A DNA stretch of 60,964 nt from a bacterium (GCA_026708055.1 JAPOVS010000047.1:1-60964), one strand, 5' to 3'; positions 22,436-28,582 are shown, numbered from the stretch's first letter. Notes: generated by a model from the letters alone, not told the origin. Translations and numbers: made by a program.

Positions 22436-22870
22436 GTGCGCACTGCCCCTCTGGCGCTGATCCTGGGGGCCGTGGCCTGCCTGGTGGCTCTCGTGGCTTC
22501 CCGCAGGCGCGGTCGCTGGCGCGGCGTGCTGGCCTCGCCGGACGTCCCTTCGTCGCTGGATCGAGCCGCATTCGATCACCTGGGCACGGGAGCGCACCGG
22601 AAGCTCTGGCTCGTCGCCGTCCTCACCGACAGCGCCTGCGGTACGTGCCCCTCGACGCTGGAACGGCTCGAGCCCCTGGCCGGTCCCGAGGTGGAGGTGG
22701 TCGAGGTGGACGCCGGCAGGCACCGGCAGCTGCACGACTCCTACGGGATGGACGCCGTCCCGTTCACGCTGGTGGCCGACGGTGACGGGGCCGTGCAGGC
22801 CTGGATTCTCGGACCGCCGACAGCCGGCGACATCGCCGCGGTCCAGCGCGTCGTGGCCGAGCAGGATTGA
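22436..22870 (+). CDS. Membrane-anchored thioredoxin-like protein
   Basis: 144 aa. One N-terminal membrane helix (about residues 5-21) is followed by a basic stretch and a thioredoxin-fold domain. The redox pair is C68-G-T-C71 in SACGTCPST, and the cis-proline loop is DAVPFTLV. GTG start, 27 nt after the ftsH stop, same strand. The topology (basic residues after the helix) suggests the domain may face the cytoplasm, which is unusual for ResA/DsbE-like proteins. A role in thiol exchange near the membrane is inferred from fold and CxxC only. Confidence 0.65.
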   Translation: MRTAPLALILGAVACLVALVASRRRGRWRGVLASPDVPSSLDRAAFDHLGTGAHRKLWLVAVLTDSACGTCPSTLERLEPLAGPEVEVVEVDAGRHRQLHDSYGMDAVPFTLVADGDGAVQAWILGPPTAGDIAAVQRVVAEQD

Positions 22871-23000
22871 CCGGAGCGGCGCCCAAGCAGCAGTGGCCGA
22901 CGCCACAAAGACGGCACGGGCACCCGACTCGGACGGGAACGGGTTCACCGCCGCCGGCGGGCGGGCGCCAGAGATCACCCAGGCCTGTCACACCCTTCCG

Positions 23001-23006
23001 TAGGAT
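23001..23006 (+). promoter_or_regulatory. Candidate -10 element (TAGGAT) for the N4-cytosine methyltransferase
   Basis: TAGGAT lies 35 nt before the methyltransferase ATG, leaving a short leader with GAAGGG about 11 nt from the start. The 171-nt gap after the thioredoxin-like gene also contains a CCGCC/GGCGG hairpin near 22950-22967 that could end ftsH transcription. Confidence 0.35.
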
Positions 23007-23041
23007 GCAGGTACAGCCCCCGCCCGAAGGGAACTCCCGCG

Positions 23042-24283
23042 ATGATCACCGGCGCCAACGGCAGCAACCCGCCGGACATCAAGCCACGCACACCCGTGGC
23101 GGCACTGCGACCCGAGCGCTATGGCACACTCCGGAGCCGTTATCCCCTGGACTCGGTGGCGAAGGCCGTGGGCATGTCGCCGACCTTCGTCCGCAAGGTC
23201 GTCGGGAAGCGGACCGATCTAGCCGCTGACGACGTACTCACCCTCCTCGACCAGGACTCGTTCAACGAAACCTTCGCACCACGATCCCGGGTCATCGACC
23301 ATCTCGAGAGTCACACTGCGGTGACCGACGAGCGGGATTTCACTGCGAATCCTCCCGACTGCGAGTTGCGTCGGGGCAGTGCGCTCGACCTGCTGGAGTC
23401 GGTCCCGAGTTCGAGCGTCCAGTGCGTCGTCACCTCCACGCCGTATTGGGGTATGCGTCTCTACGAATGCTCCCACGACGTGACTTGGGCCGATGGCGAG
23501 CACTGTGCGTTCGGTCACGAACAAACGCCGGAGGGCTTCGTTCGGCACACTGTTCAGGTGCTCGACGCACTCTCCCGGGTCCTGACCGACGACGGCTCCA
23601 TATGGTGGAACGTCATGGACAGCTTCAACACCCGCACCCAAGTGCGCGGCTCCGCGCTCGAAGCCCTCCGGGCGATGGAAGGCAAGGACGGCAGAAAATG
23701 GCGCGAGCACGACGTGCGCCGCTACTCCGCCGGTCACTCGTATCTGAAGGACGGCGAGCAGTGCCTGATCCCGGCCCTGATCGCCCAGCGGGCCAGCGCC
23801 ATCGGACTCTACGTCAAGACGGTCATCACATGGGCCAAGCGGGGTTCGCTGCCCGAGCCGCAGCATTCGCGAGTCAGTCGGAATCTGGAGTACATCATCC
23901 ACATCACGAAGAACCGGACGCCGAAGTTCTCCCGCGACCCCTACCACGTCTGTGACCCGGTGTTCGGGGGCCGCAACCCCGAATGCGAATCGGAGAAGTT
24001 GTCCGACGTGTGGGTTCTTGCCACATCGGGCGGCGGGAACGGGCACGGGGCGCAATTCCCCGTCGCACTGCCCGGCCGCTGCATCGCGCTCAGCACCGAG
24101 CCGGGGGACCTGGTGCTGGATCCGTTCGTGGGAACCGGCAACTCGGGGATCGCGGCCAGGCACCACCGGTGCGCATTCCTCGGATTTGACGTGTCGGAGA
24201 ATTACCTGTCGGTTGCCGAGGAACGGCTAGGCCAGCAGGGCCCGAAGTCAGCTCTCTCCGGGAGGTACCGGCTCGTCGGCTAA
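23042..24283 (+). CDS. N4-cytosine (beta-class) DNA methyltransferase with N-terminal helix-turn-helix
   Basis: 413 aa. Motif order is beta class: catalytic motif IV near the N-side as TSTPYWG (131-137) and SAM-binding motif I at the C-side as DPFVGTGNSG (from 360). Motif IV is normally TSPPY; the first proline is threonine here (codon ACG). Residues about 33-58 (LDSVAKAVGMSPTFVRKVVG) look like a helix-turn-helix, so the enzyme may also bind an operator, as M.SsoII-type methylases do. The last 36 nt overlap the convergent nuclease gene. Base composition is lower in GC than neighbours. Probable role: protecting the host from the adjacent McrB-like/nuclease pair. Confidence 0.85.
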   Translation: MITGANGSNPPDIKPRTPVAALRPERYGTLRSRYPLDSVAKAVGMSPTFVRKVVGKRTDLAADDVLTLLDQDSFNETFAPRSRVIDHLESHTAVTDERDFTANPPDCELRRGSALDLLESVPSSSVQCVVTSTPYWGMRLYECSHDVTWADGEHCAFGHEQTPEGFVRHTVQVLDALSRVLTDDGSIWWNVMDSFNTRTQVRGSALEALRAMEGKDGRKWREHDVRRYSAGHSYLKDGEQCLIPALIAQRASAIGLYVKTVITWAKRGSLPEPQHSRVSRNLEYIIHITKNRTPKFSRDPYHVCDPVFGGRNPECESEKLSDVWVLATSGGGNGHGAQFPVALPGRCIALSTEPGDLVLDPFVGTGNSGIAARHHRCAFLGFDVSENYLSVAEERLGQQGPKSALSGRYRLVG

Positions 24284-25474
24284 GAACCTCCTCACCAGAG
24301 CCGGCACCGCCGATGCATGGGTCGAACCGAGAACGATCTTCATGGACCGCCACGCCTCCAATCCGAAGCTCGTCGCCGGAACCACCTCCTCCGGGCCGAC
24401 GACGAATCCCCAGACCTGCTGTGCGAGCCCATTGAGCGTGTCAAGAACGTAGCTCGATACTTGGTGATAGCCGTCACGGCCAACGTAGGTTGCGTCCGCG
24501 CTCCATTTGCACTCGAGAAGAAGCGCGCGCTCGCCGGGACGGATCAGAAGAATGTCGGACCCAATGGCTCCACCGGTATCCGGGACGCCGGCCAGAGCCG
24601 ACGCATACGTGGACGGGCCAAGCTCGTAGTGCGAGCGGGCGCCCGCCGACTCGAACCACAGATCCCACGATCGGCCATCCGGTTCGACTGCACTCAACTG
24701 GGGGCCGGTTCGCAGGCCGCGCACTGGCATATTCCAACGCATGTTGCACTGCGCCGATCGAAGACCTGCGACGGCGAATCCGAATGCGCTGACGTGAAAC
24801 AGCCTCCACCGCAGTTCGGCGTCGGGTTCAAGCAGGCCGAAAGCCAGGAACCCCGGATCCTGGGCGGCTCGAACCGTCAGACGGGCGGCCTGCGCGACGG
24901 CGCGCCAAGGAGGACCGGAGGCCTCCAACGAGCGCAGTTCAACGTGACTCGGTCGAACCGGCTCAACGTCGTGGGCGAATCGCTCGGTCACTGTGCGCAG
25001 AAGACGAGCTGGCGGGGCGATGCGATCGATCAGCAGCGGCGCATCGCGAGGATCGAGCCGATCGAGCGCGTCGCTGAGTTCCGCGGAGAGCCACGCCAGC
25101 GTCCTCATCGCCACCCCGCCGACGACCCGGTGTCGCGCCCGCACGACATACCGGCGCGGCGGCCAGCCGTGCTCCCGGACCGACGCGATCCAGTCGATCC
25201 TGCTCTGGAGCGTGGACAGCACCATTCGCTCGGTCGCCGTGGCCGTCGGCAGACATTGCTCCCAGTGCCGCAGCGACGCAGGCCACTGCGCGACACACGG
25301 TTCGAGTAGGCCGAGGAGGACGCGGCGAGCTCGATTCCGAACCTCGTCCGGCGTCCAGGCACCCAACGCGTCAGGCTCGGTGACCGCGGACACCAATTCG
25401 ATCACCTTCCCGTCACCGGTCCAGACGGAAGTGATCTCCTTCAGCCCCTCTCGGGGGATACTAAGCGTGTTCAA
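24248..25474 (-). CDS. PD-(D/E)XK nuclease, probable McrC-like restriction subunit
   Basis: 408 aa, no close relative recognised. The C-terminal third has a PD-(D/E)XK core: D307 in GSDILL, E321-x-K323 in LLECKW, and a RecB/McrC-type QxxxY helix Q338-Y342. The N-terminal ~300 residues are mostly alpha-helical, with WLSAELSDALDRL near 128-140. They may correspond to the DUF2357 region of McrC proteins, but the resemblance is weak. It starts with TTG, which overlaps the ATPase stop as TTGA, so the two are almost certainly made together. It reads toward the methyltransferase and overlaps its 3' end by 36 nt. Confidence 0.7.
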   Translation of the reverse strand: MNTLSIPREGLKEITSVWTGDGKVIELVSAVTEPDALGAWTPDEVRNRARRVLLGLLEPCVAQWPASLRHWEQCLPTATATERMVLSTLQSRIDWIASVREHGWPPRRYVVRARHRVVGGVAMRTLAWLSAELSDALDRLDPRDAPLLIDRIAPPARLLRTVTERFAHDVEPVRPSHVELRSLEASGPPWRAVAQAARLTVRAAQDPGFLAFGLLEPDAELRWRLFHVSAFGFAVAGLRSAQCNMRWNMPVRGLRTGPQLSAVEPDGRSWDLWFESAGARSHYELGPSTYASALAGVPDTGGAIGSDILLIRPGERALLLECKWSADATYVGRDGYHQVSSYVLDTLNGLAQQVWGFVVGPEEVVPATSFGLEAWRSMKIVLGSTHASAVPALVRRFLADEPVPPGES

Positions 25475-26433
25475 CTAAGCATATGGCGTTGCGATAGAAT
25501 CCACTGCCACTGGACCTCGGTATAGACCTCTTCATCGTCCAGTATCCGATGGCCCAGCATCTGCAATGTCTCATCACTGTAGGTGGCGAGGTATTTTCCG
25601 ACGTTCAAGACGTAACCCTCTGCCAACTGTTCAGCCAGTGAGTTCGATTCAGCGCTGGGTTCGAGGTATCGCGCGATCCGCAAGAAGACCGCTGGGCCAA
25701 GGGAAGTCTCCGGTTCTGAGCAATGGGCTGAGTAGAGCCCGAGAATCGCCACAAGCACAGGATCCTCAATCCCGGGATGGTGTGTTCGCATCAGTTCTTC
25801 GAACTGGCCTGGAGTTATCGTCGGCACCGGGACGACAACGAAGCGACGAGACAGGGCGAGACCGAATCTGAAGACCCTCATGGCGTCCTGGGGGTTGTAA
25901 GTGCCGATCATCCGCCAGTCTTGTCCAGCAAGAAAGCGCATCGACCCTCCAGCGTCGTCCGACTCCGCCATGCTCGACGCCGACTGGCTCCAGCCCAGGA
26001 GTACCGGGACACCCGTGTGCGGATCCGTGCGTCCGATCTGAACCTCCTCGTCCGCGAGCCACGTCAGGAGAGGACCCATGATTCTGTCCAAGTCCGCCCT
26101 GTTGGCTTCGTCGAGGACGAGCCAGCGATTCTGACGCAGCGCATCGAGGATGAACCCATTCGACCATCGGAGCGTGCCATCAGCAGCGGGAGCGAGACCA
26201 CCGATCAACTCGAACGCACTCCAAGTGTCATCCGGTGTCACCCACACCGGATCGGGGCGGAAGCCCGCTTCGAATCCGAGCGCTGTCGGGTCATCGGCCA
26301 CCTGATCCGCTATCCATCGAACCAGCCGTCCCTTGCCGGTGCCCGGAGGCCCGACGAGCATGACGAATGAGTAGCTCGTCACCGCGCGACGCAGCATGCG
26401 CTCGACGCGCCGATCGAGGATCACCGGTTCCAA
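25471..26433 (-). CDS. McrB-like AAA+ (AAA_5) ATPase/GTPase
   Basis: 320 aa, a bare motor domain. Walker A GPPGTGKG (28-35), Walker B WLVLDEANRAD (104-114), sensor-1 IGTYNP (176-181) and arginine finger in LSRRF (194-198). The spacing and the DEANRAD and sensor patterns match the McrB/MoxR branch that drives McrC nucleases. No N-terminal DNA-reading domain (DUF3578, EVE or B3-like) precedes the motor, unlike E. coli McrB, so target recognition must come from elsewhere. TTG start: no ATG or GTG precedes the Walker A motif at a sensible distance apart from a GTG three codons downstream. Lower GC than flanking genes. Confidence 0.78.
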   Translation of the reverse strand: MEPVILDRRVERMLRRAVTSYSFVMLVGPPGTGKGRLVRWIADQVADDPTALGFEAGFRPDPVWVTPDDTWSAFELIGGLAPAADGTLRWSNGFILDALRQNRWLVLDEANRADLDRIMGPLLTWLADEEVQIGRTDPHTGVPVLLGWSQSASSMAESDDAGGSMRFLAGQDWRMIGTYNPQDAMRVFRFGLALSRRFVVVPVPTITPGQFEELMRTHHPGIEDPVLVAILGLYSAHCSEPETSLGPAVFLRIARYLEPSAESNSLAEQLAEGYVLNVGKYLATYSDETLQMLGHRILDDEEVYTEVQWQWILSQRHMLS

Positions 26434-26470
26434 CTCGTCCGTGGGAGTCGTCGCCGCTGTCTGCCGGGCG

Positions 26471-26476
26471 ACAGTA
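26471..26476 (-). promoter_or_regulatory. Candidate -10 element (TACTGT) for the ATPase-nuclease unit
   Basis: TACTGT 37 nt before the ATPase start on the same strand. The same hexamer precedes the alcohol dehydrogenase at 54747. Confidence 0.3.
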
Positions 26477-26510
26477 GCGCTGCGAGCCTCTGCCGGAAGT
26501 GCGAGAGGAG

Positions 26511-26527
26511 ACCGGCCAAAGGCCGGT
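26511..26527. terminator. Short perfect hairpin between two minus-strand genes
   Basis: ACCGGCC-AAA-GGCCGGT, a 7-bp perfect stem with a 3-nt loop, 31 nt downstream of the flavoenzyme stop and 78 nt upstream of the ATPase start. There is no T-run; a U-less terminator or an operator are both possible. Confidence 0.4.
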
Positions 26528-26557
26528 TCGCTCCGCGGCGGCGAGCGGCCTGGCGGC

Positions 26558-28582
26558 TCAGAGTTTGCGGGCTTGGCGGTGGCCTTCGTAGACGGCTTCG
26601 TAGGTGGTGCGCGGGGCGATGGCGTCGCCGATCATCTCGGTGCTGACCCCGCGGCTCCGCACCGCGTGGTAGAGGCCGTTGTCTGACTGGCGGCCCGTGG
26701 CCATCACGATCCAGTCGGCAGGCAGGGTTGTGGTCAGGTCGTTCACATAGACGTTCAGGAACTCCACCGCGTCGCCCTTGATCTCCTTCACGAACAGATC
26801 CGGCAACACCTCGACGCCCGACTCGTAGAGGTGCTGGCGCACCCACAGGTAGTACACCTCGGGGATCGTCTCCATGCCGATCATCGGCCAGCGGGTCACA
26901 AGCTTCGTGTCGCAGCCGGCGTTGGCCAGCTTGACCGCCGTGAGCGGAGCCATGGCGTCCTGCAGGTCGTCGATGACGATCACCGAGCCCGACGGCTCCA
27001 CGGTGCCGGTCGCCACGTCCACCCACGTCACGCAGTTCCCCGTCTCCCAACCGGGTAGCGGCGAGGCCGTCTGGCCCTGCCACCCGTCCCGCCGGTAGTG
27101 CGAGCCGGTGGCGATGACCACATGGTCGGGCGCCTCGGCCGCCAGCAGCGCGTCGAGGTTGTCCTCGTCCACGTTCTCGCCGGTGCGGATGACGGCGCCG
27201 TTGCCCGCGGCCTGGGCGGCCAGCCACACGGCGATCTGCCCGTACTCGGACCGCTTGGGCAGTTGGGCGTGCCAGCGCACATGCCCGCCGGTCTCGATCT
27301 CCCGCTCCACGACGACCACGTCGTGGCCGCGAGCGGCGGCGATCCGGGCGTACTCCAGGCCGGCCGGGCCCCCGCCGATGACGAGGGCCTTCTTGCCGGC
27401 GGGGACGGCGGTGAGGCTGCCCTCGCCCCACTGGCGCTCGCGGCCCACGACGGGGTTGTAGACGCACTGCACGCGCCCGCCGGTGATGACGCTGCGCCAG
27501 CAGTAGTTGGCGGCCACGCAGCGGCGGATGTCGTCCTCGCGGCCCTCGCGGACCTTCTGCACCCAGTGCTCGTCGGCGAAGAGCTGGCGGGCCAGCAGGA
27601 TGGCGTCGGCCTCGTCCGCCTCCAGGATCTCCTCGGCGATCCCGGGGTTCGTGATACGCCCCACGAGCAGGACCGGCGTGTCGGTGACCTCCTTGACGGC
27701 CTTGGTGTAACCGCGTTCCCAACCGGGCTCGTAGGTCATCGGGGTGTGGATGAACGAGTGGTGGACGCCCGCGGAGATGTTGATGTAGTCGATGTCGGCG
27801 CGCTCGTCGAGGTCCACCACGATCCGCTTGACGTCGTCCATCTCCAGGTCGCCGGGCCAGAACGAAGCCGAATTGATGCGGTAGCCCACGATCTTCTCGT
27901 CACCGGCCGCGGCGCGGATGCTGGCGAGGGCCTCCAGCGAGAAGCGCAGGCGGTTCTCGTAGGAGCCGCCCCAGTCGTCGCTGCGGTGGTTGTACAGCGG
28001 CGAGAGGAACTGCCACGGCAGGTAGCCGTGCGCCATGTGGAACTCCACGCCGTCCAGCCCGGCCTCGAACGCCCGCCGCGCCGCGCTGCCGTAGGCCTCG
28101 ATTATCTCGTGGATCTCGTGGGGCTCGATCTCCTTGGGCATGGGGGCGTTGGGATACTCCCCCGGCGGCACCTGACTGGGCGCCACGTGCCACCACTCGG
28201 CATCGAGGTCGGCGGCGGGGTCCTTGTTGAGGACGTTCATGGCCCGCAGCCCGGGGTGCAGCAGCTGGGTCACGAGCCGGGTGCCGTGGCGTTGCACGGC
28301 TTCGGCCACCCGGGCGAGACTCTCGATCTGGTCGTCGGTCCACAGGCCCGGGAAGTTCAGCTCCGAGTACAGCGCCTCGGGGTGGATGATCGTGCCGCCG
28401 ATGATGATCATGCCGAGTCCCGAGCGGGCGCGCTCCTCGTAGTAGGCCACCGCCTGGTCGGTGAAGATGCCCTCGAGCGGGTCGGCCACCCACGTCGGGC
28501 AGGTGGGCGCGAAGACGACACGGTTGGGGACCGTCGTGTGCCGGACCTGCCATTCGCTGAAGAGTTTGGGATACGCGGTCAT
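26558..28582 (-). CDS. FMN/FAD oxidoreductase, trimethylamine-dehydrogenase / 2,4-dienoyl-CoA-reductase-like
   Basis: 674 aa, three parts: an old-yellow-enzyme TIM barrel (to about residue 345), an Fe-S loop, and a pyridine-nucleotide-disulfide fold with FAD site VIGGGPAGLE near 392. Barrel landmarks are GVEFHMAHGYLPWQF (178-192) and DDWGGSYENRLRF. The Fe-S loop normally reads CxxCxxC-x11/12-C; here it is C355, A358, C361, C373, so the second ligand is alanine. The substrate is unknown; family members demethylate amines, reduce enoyl-CoAs or act on steroids and aromatics. A lone transcription unit behind a TAGTTT hexamer at 28655-28660. Confidence 0.85.
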   Translation of the reverse strand: MTAYPKLFSEWQVRHTTVPNRVVFAPTCPTWVADPLEGIFTDQAVAYYEERARSGLGMIIIGGTIIHPEALYSELNFPGLWTDDQIESLARVAEAVQRHGTRLVTQLLHPGLRAMNVLNKDPAADLDAEWWHVAPSQVPPGEYPNAPMPKEIEPHEIHEIIEAYGSAARRAFEAGLDGVEFHMAHGYLPWQFLSPLYNHRSDDWGGSYENRLRFSLEALASIRAAAGDEKIVGYRINSASFWPGDLEMDDVKRIVVDLDERADIDYINISAGVHHSFIHTPMTYEPGWERGYTKAVKEVTDTPVLLVGRITNPGIAEEILEADEADAILLARQLFADEHWVQKVREGREDDIRRCVAANYCWRSVITGGRVQCVYNPVVGRERQWGEGSLTAVPAGKKALVIGGGPAGLEYARIAAARGHDVVVVEREIETGGHVRWHAQLPKRSEYGQIAVWLAAQAAGNGAVIRTGENVDEDNLDALLAAEAPDHVVIATGSHYRRDGWQGQTASPLPGWETGNCVTWVDVATGTVEPSGSVIVIDDLQDAMAPLTAVKLANAGCDTKLVTRWPMIGMETIPEVYYLWVRQHLYESGVEVLPDLFVKEIKGDAVEFLNVYVNDLTTTLPADWIVMATGRQSDNGLYHAVRSRGVSTEMIGDAIAPRTTYEAVYEGHRQARKL

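What the first reader, a model, noticed from the sequence alone, without database searches (positions are those of the whole stretch)
23042..26433. Compact McrBC-like restriction-modification cassette: HTH-N4C methyltransferase facing a bare McrB-type motor and a PD-(D/E)XK nuclease
Three genes lie between housekeeping blocks, with visibly lower GC than neighbours. The ATPase and nuclease are coupled by TTGA, and their unit converges on the methyltransferase with a 36-nt overlap. McrB-like motors paired with separate nucleases and cognate methylases are known (LlaJI, BsuMI), but those use C5 methylases and a McrB with a DNA-reading domain. Here the motor is bare, the nuclease has a long helical N-terminus that may hold recognition, and the methylase is N4-cytosine type. 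I infer a restriction-modification system of an undescribed subtype.
Basis: partly seen in the sequence, partly recalled or inferred. Interest (0 to 1): 0.82.

Follow-up and report, generated by a model that had tools for sequence, protein, structure and literature searches.

The report
Truncated McrBC-like restriction-modification cassette
A three-gene anti-virus cassette (a DNA methylase plus a motor and a DNA-cutting enzyme) in an uncultured actinobacterium; its odd 'bare motor' is not a new design but a gene that has lost its front end, which in intact relatives carries the domain that most likely reads the DNA target.

Summary
The three genes are real and form a McrBC-like restriction-modification (RM) cassette: β-class DNA methyltransferase (MTase), McrB-type AAA+ motor (NxxD motif), and a PD-(D/E)XK nuclease whose D307/E321/K323 are invariant across nine divergent homologues. 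The same three-gene convergent set occurs in four other Acidimicrobiia genomes and two viral-collection contigs. The cassette sits between a thioredoxin-like gene and fadH; five same-genus genomes lack it there.

The headline 'bare motor' is wrong as a subtype. In every intact relative the motor carries a ~205-230-residue N-terminal domain (NTD). Against a same-genus copy the window has lost ~727 bp (replaced by 47 bp): the start codon, upstream region and first ~204 codons. The NTD is nowhere else in the genome.

The NTD is inherited with the MTase, not with the motor and nuclease. The same MTase+NTD pair occurs on canonical McrBC (G056) and on an unrelated motor (Rhodococcus plasmid), while the window's motor type occurs with other NTDs and MTases, or with none. 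So the NTD is the best candidate for target recognition, and the window copy is predicted to modify but not restrict normally. An assembly artefact is not excluded. LlaJI, PcaI and BsuMI are the known kind.

The parts
23042..24283 (+). DNA methyltransferase (β-class, probably m4C), 413 aa; motif IV TSTPYWG 23432-23452, motif I DPFVGTGN 24119-24142, HTH-like segment 23147-23206 (by eye)
24248..25474 (-). PD-(D/E)XK nuclease, McrC-like, 408 aa; D307 = 24554-24556, E321 = 24512-24514, K323 = 24506-24508; conserved W95 = 25190-25192
25471..26433 (-). McrB-type AAA+ motor, 5'-truncated gene (320 aa from a TTG); Walker A 26329-26352, Walker B 26092-26124, NxxD (GTYNPQD) 25885-25905
26434..26505 (-). 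in-frame relic of the linker between the lost N-terminal domain and the motor (aligns with G382 codons from about residue 204); no start codon in frame up to the stop at 26632-26634
26506..26552 (.). 47-bp filler at the deletion junction, with a GC-rich hairpin; replaces about 727 bp present in G382
22885..26538 (.). cassette insertion, absent from the same place in five same-genus genomes
22436..22870 (+). left flank: thioredoxin-like gene
26558..28582 (-). right flank: FadH-type reductase gene

Best explanation
This is a copy of a McrBC-like (LlaJI/PcaI-type) restriction-modification cassette whose motor gene has lost its 5' end. In the intact lineage the MTase marks a short target (probably N4-methylcytosine). 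The N-terminal domain of the McrB-like motor reads the same target when it is unmethylated, the AAA+ ring translocates DNA using NTP, and the partner McrC-like PD-(D/E)XK nuclease cuts. In the window the MTase and nuclease genes are intact, but the motor gene has lost its start codon, upstream region and first ~204 codons, so modification should persist while restriction is impaired or lost. Shown: gene content, homology, catalytic residues, conserved three-gene synteny, empty sites, the truncation as assembled, co-inheritance of NTD and MTase. Inferred: the chemistry and target of the MTase, recognition by the NTD, the McrBC-like mechanism, and loss of restriction.
For: Convergent three-gene set in four further Acidimicrobiia genomes (G382/L009, G263/L010, L011, G769) and in L056 and L058. 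Full-length motors of 536-553 aa with an NTD in G382, G779, G263, L011 and G769. Window-G382 homology stops at 26505 and resumes in fadH at 26553; NTD not found elsewhere in G000. Empty sites in G343, G461, G437, G779 and G778. NTD leave-one-out hhalign: Rhodococcus 1.4e-20, L056 1.2e-9, L058 1.2e-9; G056 1.8e-4 against the other eight; unrelated McrB NTDs at 0.034 or worse. MTases 50-68% identical between these systems. Motors with this MTase held as one clade including G056: AU p = 0.005 and 0.011; G056's nuclease is PF10117 McrC. Nuclease: D307/E321/K323 invariant; Foldseek rank 2 is McrC 6ut6_G. LlaJI precedent: R1 alone binds the target, R2 is required for restriction (PMC1459862).
Against: The truncated motor shows no relaxed constraint: changes on the window branch are 11 N / 28 S, against 15/25 (G382) and 11/29 (G779). 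So the loss is recent, or the product is still used, or the assembly is wrong; reads were not available. Both AF2 models are weak (pLDDT 56 and 52). The NTD has no Pfam or PDB match, so its DNA-binding role rests on co-inheritance and on the LlaJI analogy. Grouping L058's motor with the Acidimicrobiia motors is not rejected (p = 0.31), so effector exchange rests on G056 and Rhodococcus.
Confidence: 0.72

Rival explanations
1. Assembly artefact: the window's genome has the complete motor gene, but the draft assembly skipped about 700 bp or joined two strain variants, so the cassette is an ordinary intact system.
For: The contig belongs to an 87-contig draft genome, and the motor keeps normal constraint.
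Against: A 47-bp filler with its own hairpin, unlike G382, stands at the junction; fadH and the reading-frame relic on either side are clean. No NTD fragment is found on any other contig of the genome.
Confidence: 0.2
2. One reading: a working bare-motor RM system in which the nuclease N-terminus (or the MTase) supplies target recognition.
For: Bare McrB-like motors exist (LlaIB 337 aa, BsuMIB 343 aa; PMC1459862), and the motor shows no sign of decay.
Against: Those bare motors come with a third restriction ORF, which is absent here. Every sister copy with the motor gene complete has an NTD. The nuclease N-terminal core is shared with systems that have other MTases. The only in-frame start at the 5' end is a TTG with no evident ribosome-binding site.
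Confidence: 0.07
3. Domesticated or decaying system in which the retained MTase now acts as a regulatory or anti-restriction methylase and the motor and nuclease are remnants.
For: Loss of the restriction half with the MTase kept is a common route of RM decay (general knowledge). An orphan MTase of the same subfamily lies on a phage contig (L057).
Against: The nuclease ORF is intact with all catalytic residues and the motor domain is not decaying, so any such state is recent.
Confidence: 0.25

Closest known systems
LlaJI (Lactococcus lactis pNP40; PMC1459862)
   Same: McrB-like motor with a unique N-terminal half plus a separate PD-(D/E)XK subunit and cognate MTase activity; restricts unmethylated DNA
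   Different: two C5 MTases, all genes in one orientation; R1 keeps its N-terminal half, which the window motor has lost
PcaI (PMC8989522)
   Same: three genes: MTase, AAA+ subunit, PD-(D/E)XK subunit; described as mobile
   Different: Dcm-like C5 MTase (CCNGG); nuclease annotated DUF2357
BsuMI / LlaI
   Same: small bare McrB-like motor (343 / 337 aa, PMC1459862)
   Different: three-ORF restriction cassettes; the window has no third restriction ORF and its motor became bare by deletion
Type IV McrBC (PF10117)
   Same: NxxD AAA+ motor and PD-(D/E)XK partner
   Different: canonical McrBC has no MTase and cuts modified DNA; the window nuclease gives no PF10117 hit; G000 has a separate true McrBC on contig C39
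MTase-associated branches of the McrB census (PMC11090510)
   Same: that paper reports widespread McrB-MTase association in NxxD, NxD and NxxxD branches
   Different: no details given there (deferred to a later publication); whether this lineage is included is unknown

Membership tests
LlaJI/PcaI-type McrBC-like Type II RM | McrB-type AAA+ motor with Walker A/B and NxxD | tested here: met
   AAA_5 4.5e-12; GPPGTGKG, LDEANRAD, GTYNPQD
LlaJI/PcaI-type McrBC-like Type II RM | adjacent McrC-like PD-(D/E)XK nuclease | tested here: met
   D307/E321/K323 invariant in 9; hhalign to the Paenarthrobacter nuclease 3e-7 over 289 columns; McrC is Foldseek rank 2, E 0.01, on a low-confidence model
LlaJI/PcaI-type McrBC-like Type II RM | cognate DNA MTase next to the pair | tested here: met
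   window, L009, L010, L011, L018, L056, L058
LlaJI/PcaI-type McrBC-like Type II RM | specificity domain at the N-terminus of the motor (two-subunit form) | tested here: not met
   absent in the window copy by 5' truncation; present in all intact relatives. The window is therefore filed as a truncated copy of a member lineage, not as a complete member
LlaJI/PcaI-type McrBC-like Type II RM | restricts unmethylated DNA at the MTase's target | not testable with these tools
   needs a phage plating or cleavage assay
BsuMI/LlaI bare-motor cassettes | third restriction ORF accompanying the bare motor | tested here: not met
   no further plausible gene between the flanking genes
Type IV McrBC | nuclease subunit matches PF10117 | tested here: not met
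   no Pfam hit up to E = 1, whereas the G056 and G000 C39 nucleases match
Type IV McrBC | no cognate MTase | tested here: not met
   the MTase overlaps the nuclease gene by 36 nt, in a conserved arrangement
CoCoNuT | shortened NxD GTPase motif | tested here: not met
   window has NPQD, i.e. NxxD
β-class N4-cytosine MTase | PF01555 with motif IV before motif I and S-x-P-Y-W | tested here: met
   PF01555 6.8e-34; STPYW at 132-136 before DPFVG at 360-364
β-class N4-cytosine MTase | methylates N4 of cytosine | not testable with these tools
   closest solved chain is annotated DNA cytosine-N4 methyltransferase (8s9m, 1.3e-18), but adenine enzymes also match

The most novel reading that the evidence does not exclude
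The MTase and the motor's N-terminal domain form an exchangeable recognition module, a new family of sequence-reading domain that evolution has mounted on at least three McrBC-type effectors (the window's type, canonical McrBC in G056, and an unrelated motor/nuclease in Rhodococcus). Swapping the NTD together with the MTase should re-target McrBC-like nucleases.
Probability: 0.55. Interest if true: 0.62.

Novelty: new member of a known kind. Interest (0 to 1): 0.45.

Why it matters
It corrects an attractive false lead (a bare-motor subtype), and it yields a cleaner idea: for McrBC-like enzymes that cut unmethylated DNA, the domain that reads the target can be found by asking which part of the motor is inherited with the methylase. 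That makes the open question of how LlaJI-like enzymes choose their sites testable by domain swaps.

Tried and rejected
Nuclease searches in plasmids and two viral-contig scans found nothing; profile searches of the NTD and of the nuclease family against PDB found nothing useful. The AF2 models are too weak for fold assignment (nuclease 56, NTD 52), so the NTD model was not searched. The G153 nuclease hit (7e-4, inside an 879-aa frame) was judged chance. The G096 NTD hit (9e-5) lies in a DUF262-like ORF (named by eye) with no motor or MTase ORF in the 3.3 kb read, and was judged chance. CoCoNuT was rejected on the NxxD motif. No flanking tRNA or obvious long terminal repeat marks an integration mechanism. 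The idea that the window motor is an old pseudogene was rejected because its substitutions look constrained.

Full report
What is there. The cassette has 64.6% GC against 72.0% for the rest of the window, and no other 3.65-kb stretch falls below 69.5%. Pfam gives N6_N4_Mtase (6.8e-34) and AAA_5 (4.5e-12) and nothing for the nuclease; PADLOC's strong matches are Type II MTase models only. The motor has Walker A and B and the McrB-type NxxD motif, GTYNPQD.

Where it sits. In the same genus, G343, G461, G437, G779 and G778 have the thioredoxin-like gene next to fadH with nothing between, while the window and G382 carry the cassette there. G779 has a copy elsewhere, at a contig end. Copies also occur in G263 (= L010), L011 and G769 at other chromosomal places, in two viral-collection contigs with recombinase genes (L056, L058), and a related MTase-motor pair lies on a Rhodococcus plasmid. 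The family is rare: 3 of 296, 3 of 198 and 3 of 395 genomes in phylum, order and class samples, the query genome included and one weak chance hit in the first. So this is a mobile cassette. Named relatives are Acidimicrobiia metagenome-assembled genomes.

The bare motor is a truncation. The G382 and G263 motors extend far upstream of the window's start. Aligning window and G382 DNA, homology runs through the motor to window 26505, then breaks; it resumes at 26553 in the end of fadH. About 727 bp of G382 (the intergenic region, start codon and first ~204 codons) is replaced by 47 bp that fold into a GC-rich hairpin. The in-frame relic upstream of the TTG (...ATTPTDEL-EPVILDRR) still matches G382 (...ATTPADEP-EPAILDRR), and there is no ATG, GTG or TTG in the 66 codons back to the stop. 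The missing domain is not found elsewhere in the genome. G779, the third same-genus copy, is full length.

Is it dead? By codon changes on the trio window/G382/G779, the window motor has 11 amino-acid-changing and 28 silent codon differences of its own, against 15/25 and 11/29 in the others. There is no relaxed constraint, so the loss is recent, or the product still works, or the assembly is wrong. I cannot separate these without reads.

The nuclease. Across nine homologues, down to 12% identity, D307, E321 and K323 are invariant, with W95, P217, L225 and Y342. The AF2 model is weak (pLDDT 56), but it places D307 and E321 on successive strands (306-312, 316-322; K323 just after) followed by a helix and a strand. 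Foldseek ranks E. coli McrC second (E 0.01), and VIA-align matches McrC over 220-234 residues covering both the helical and the nuclease part, with large rmsd (about 15 Å); most other good rows are PD-(D/E)XK enzymes. The W95 region is shared with Paenarthrobacter and Priestia nucleases that accompany different MTases, which speaks against the nuclease N-terminus being the specificity element.

Which part reads the target? I split motor proteins at the P-loop and compared the pieces by hhalign. NTDs from systems with this MTase find one another (leave-one-out: Rhodococcus 1.4e-20, L056 1.2e-9, L058 1.2e-9; G056 1.8e-4, co-linear over 171 columns). NTDs of McrB-type proteins without this MTase do not (0.034 or worse in the combined-profile test). 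The motors behave differently. The Acidimicrobiia motors match Priestia (6.6e-28) and Paenarthrobacter (3.3e-27), whose NTDs are unrelated, but match Rhodococcus only around the P-loop (5e-4). G056's motor and nuclease belong with canonical McrBC (its nuclease is PF10117, 2.5e-20). In the motor tree {window, Acidimicrobiia, L056} has support 97/99 and {G056, G000 McrB} 98/91. Holding MTase-carrying motors including G056 together is rejected (AU p 0.005 and 0.011), whereas including only L058 is not (p 0.31); the groups were named after the hhalign result was seen, so these p-values are somewhat optimistic. MTases across these systems are 50-68% identical. Thus NTD and MTase travel together while motor and nuclease are exchanged: what one expects if NTD and MTase read the same site. 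For LlaJI, the motor subunit was shown to be the DNA-binding one (PMC1459862).

Mechanism. Most likely: the MTase marks the site (N4-cytosine by motif and nearest structure, unproven); the NTD of the intact motor recognises the unmarked site; the AAA+ ring moves DNA; and the McrC-like subunit cuts. In the window the recognition domain is gone, so I predict modification without normal restriction.

Comparison with the known. LlaJI, PcaI and BsuMI are the same kind of machine (PMC1459862, PMC8989522), and the McrB census reports widespread MTase association (PMC11090510). The lineage is a new member with an amino-methylating type MTase and an NTD absent from Pfam; the window copy is a truncated one.

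Noticed in passing
L057:659-1927 (IMGVR_UViG_3300044790_000009): A phage contig with a portal-like gene carries an orphan MTase of the same subfamily (56% identical, canonical SPPYW) with no motor or nuclease beside it; it may protect the phage against this RM system.
   Followed up: partly
L024:1714-5006 (G000 contig C39): The same genome has a separate canonical McrBC pair (PF10117 nuclease, GTMNTADR motor), a possible conflict partner for acquired methylases.
   Followed up: partly
L081:2619-6800 (Ensifer adhaerens plasmid pCTYH.Ch1_3): Same convergent motor-nuclease-MTase layout with a related motor but an unrelated NTD and a different MTase.
   Followed up: partly
L080, L083, L084, L086 (haloarchaeal plasmids): Motors of this type with very different N-termini (193-886 aa) and a ~450-aa partner (hypothetical protein), with no MTase annotated within the ~7.6-kb stretches read.
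   Followed up: no
L015:4590-5957 (Rhodococcus fascians A21d2 plasmid): A 455-aa ORF downstream of the motor, only partly annotated, has a PD-x(n)-DxK-like motif (PDLMI...ILDAK) and is a candidate divergent nuclease.
   Followed up: partly
window 26506-26552: The junction filler has one other partial match in the genome (C23:44904-44954, 80% over 51 bp) and forms a strong hairpin; origin unknown.
   Followed up: partly
L104:859-1860 (G096): A DUF262-like ORF (named by eye) shows a weak match (9e-5) to the NTD's GRKTVWNNTTR...SIF motif; chance, or a distant link to ParB-like domains of other restriction enzymes.
   Followed up: no
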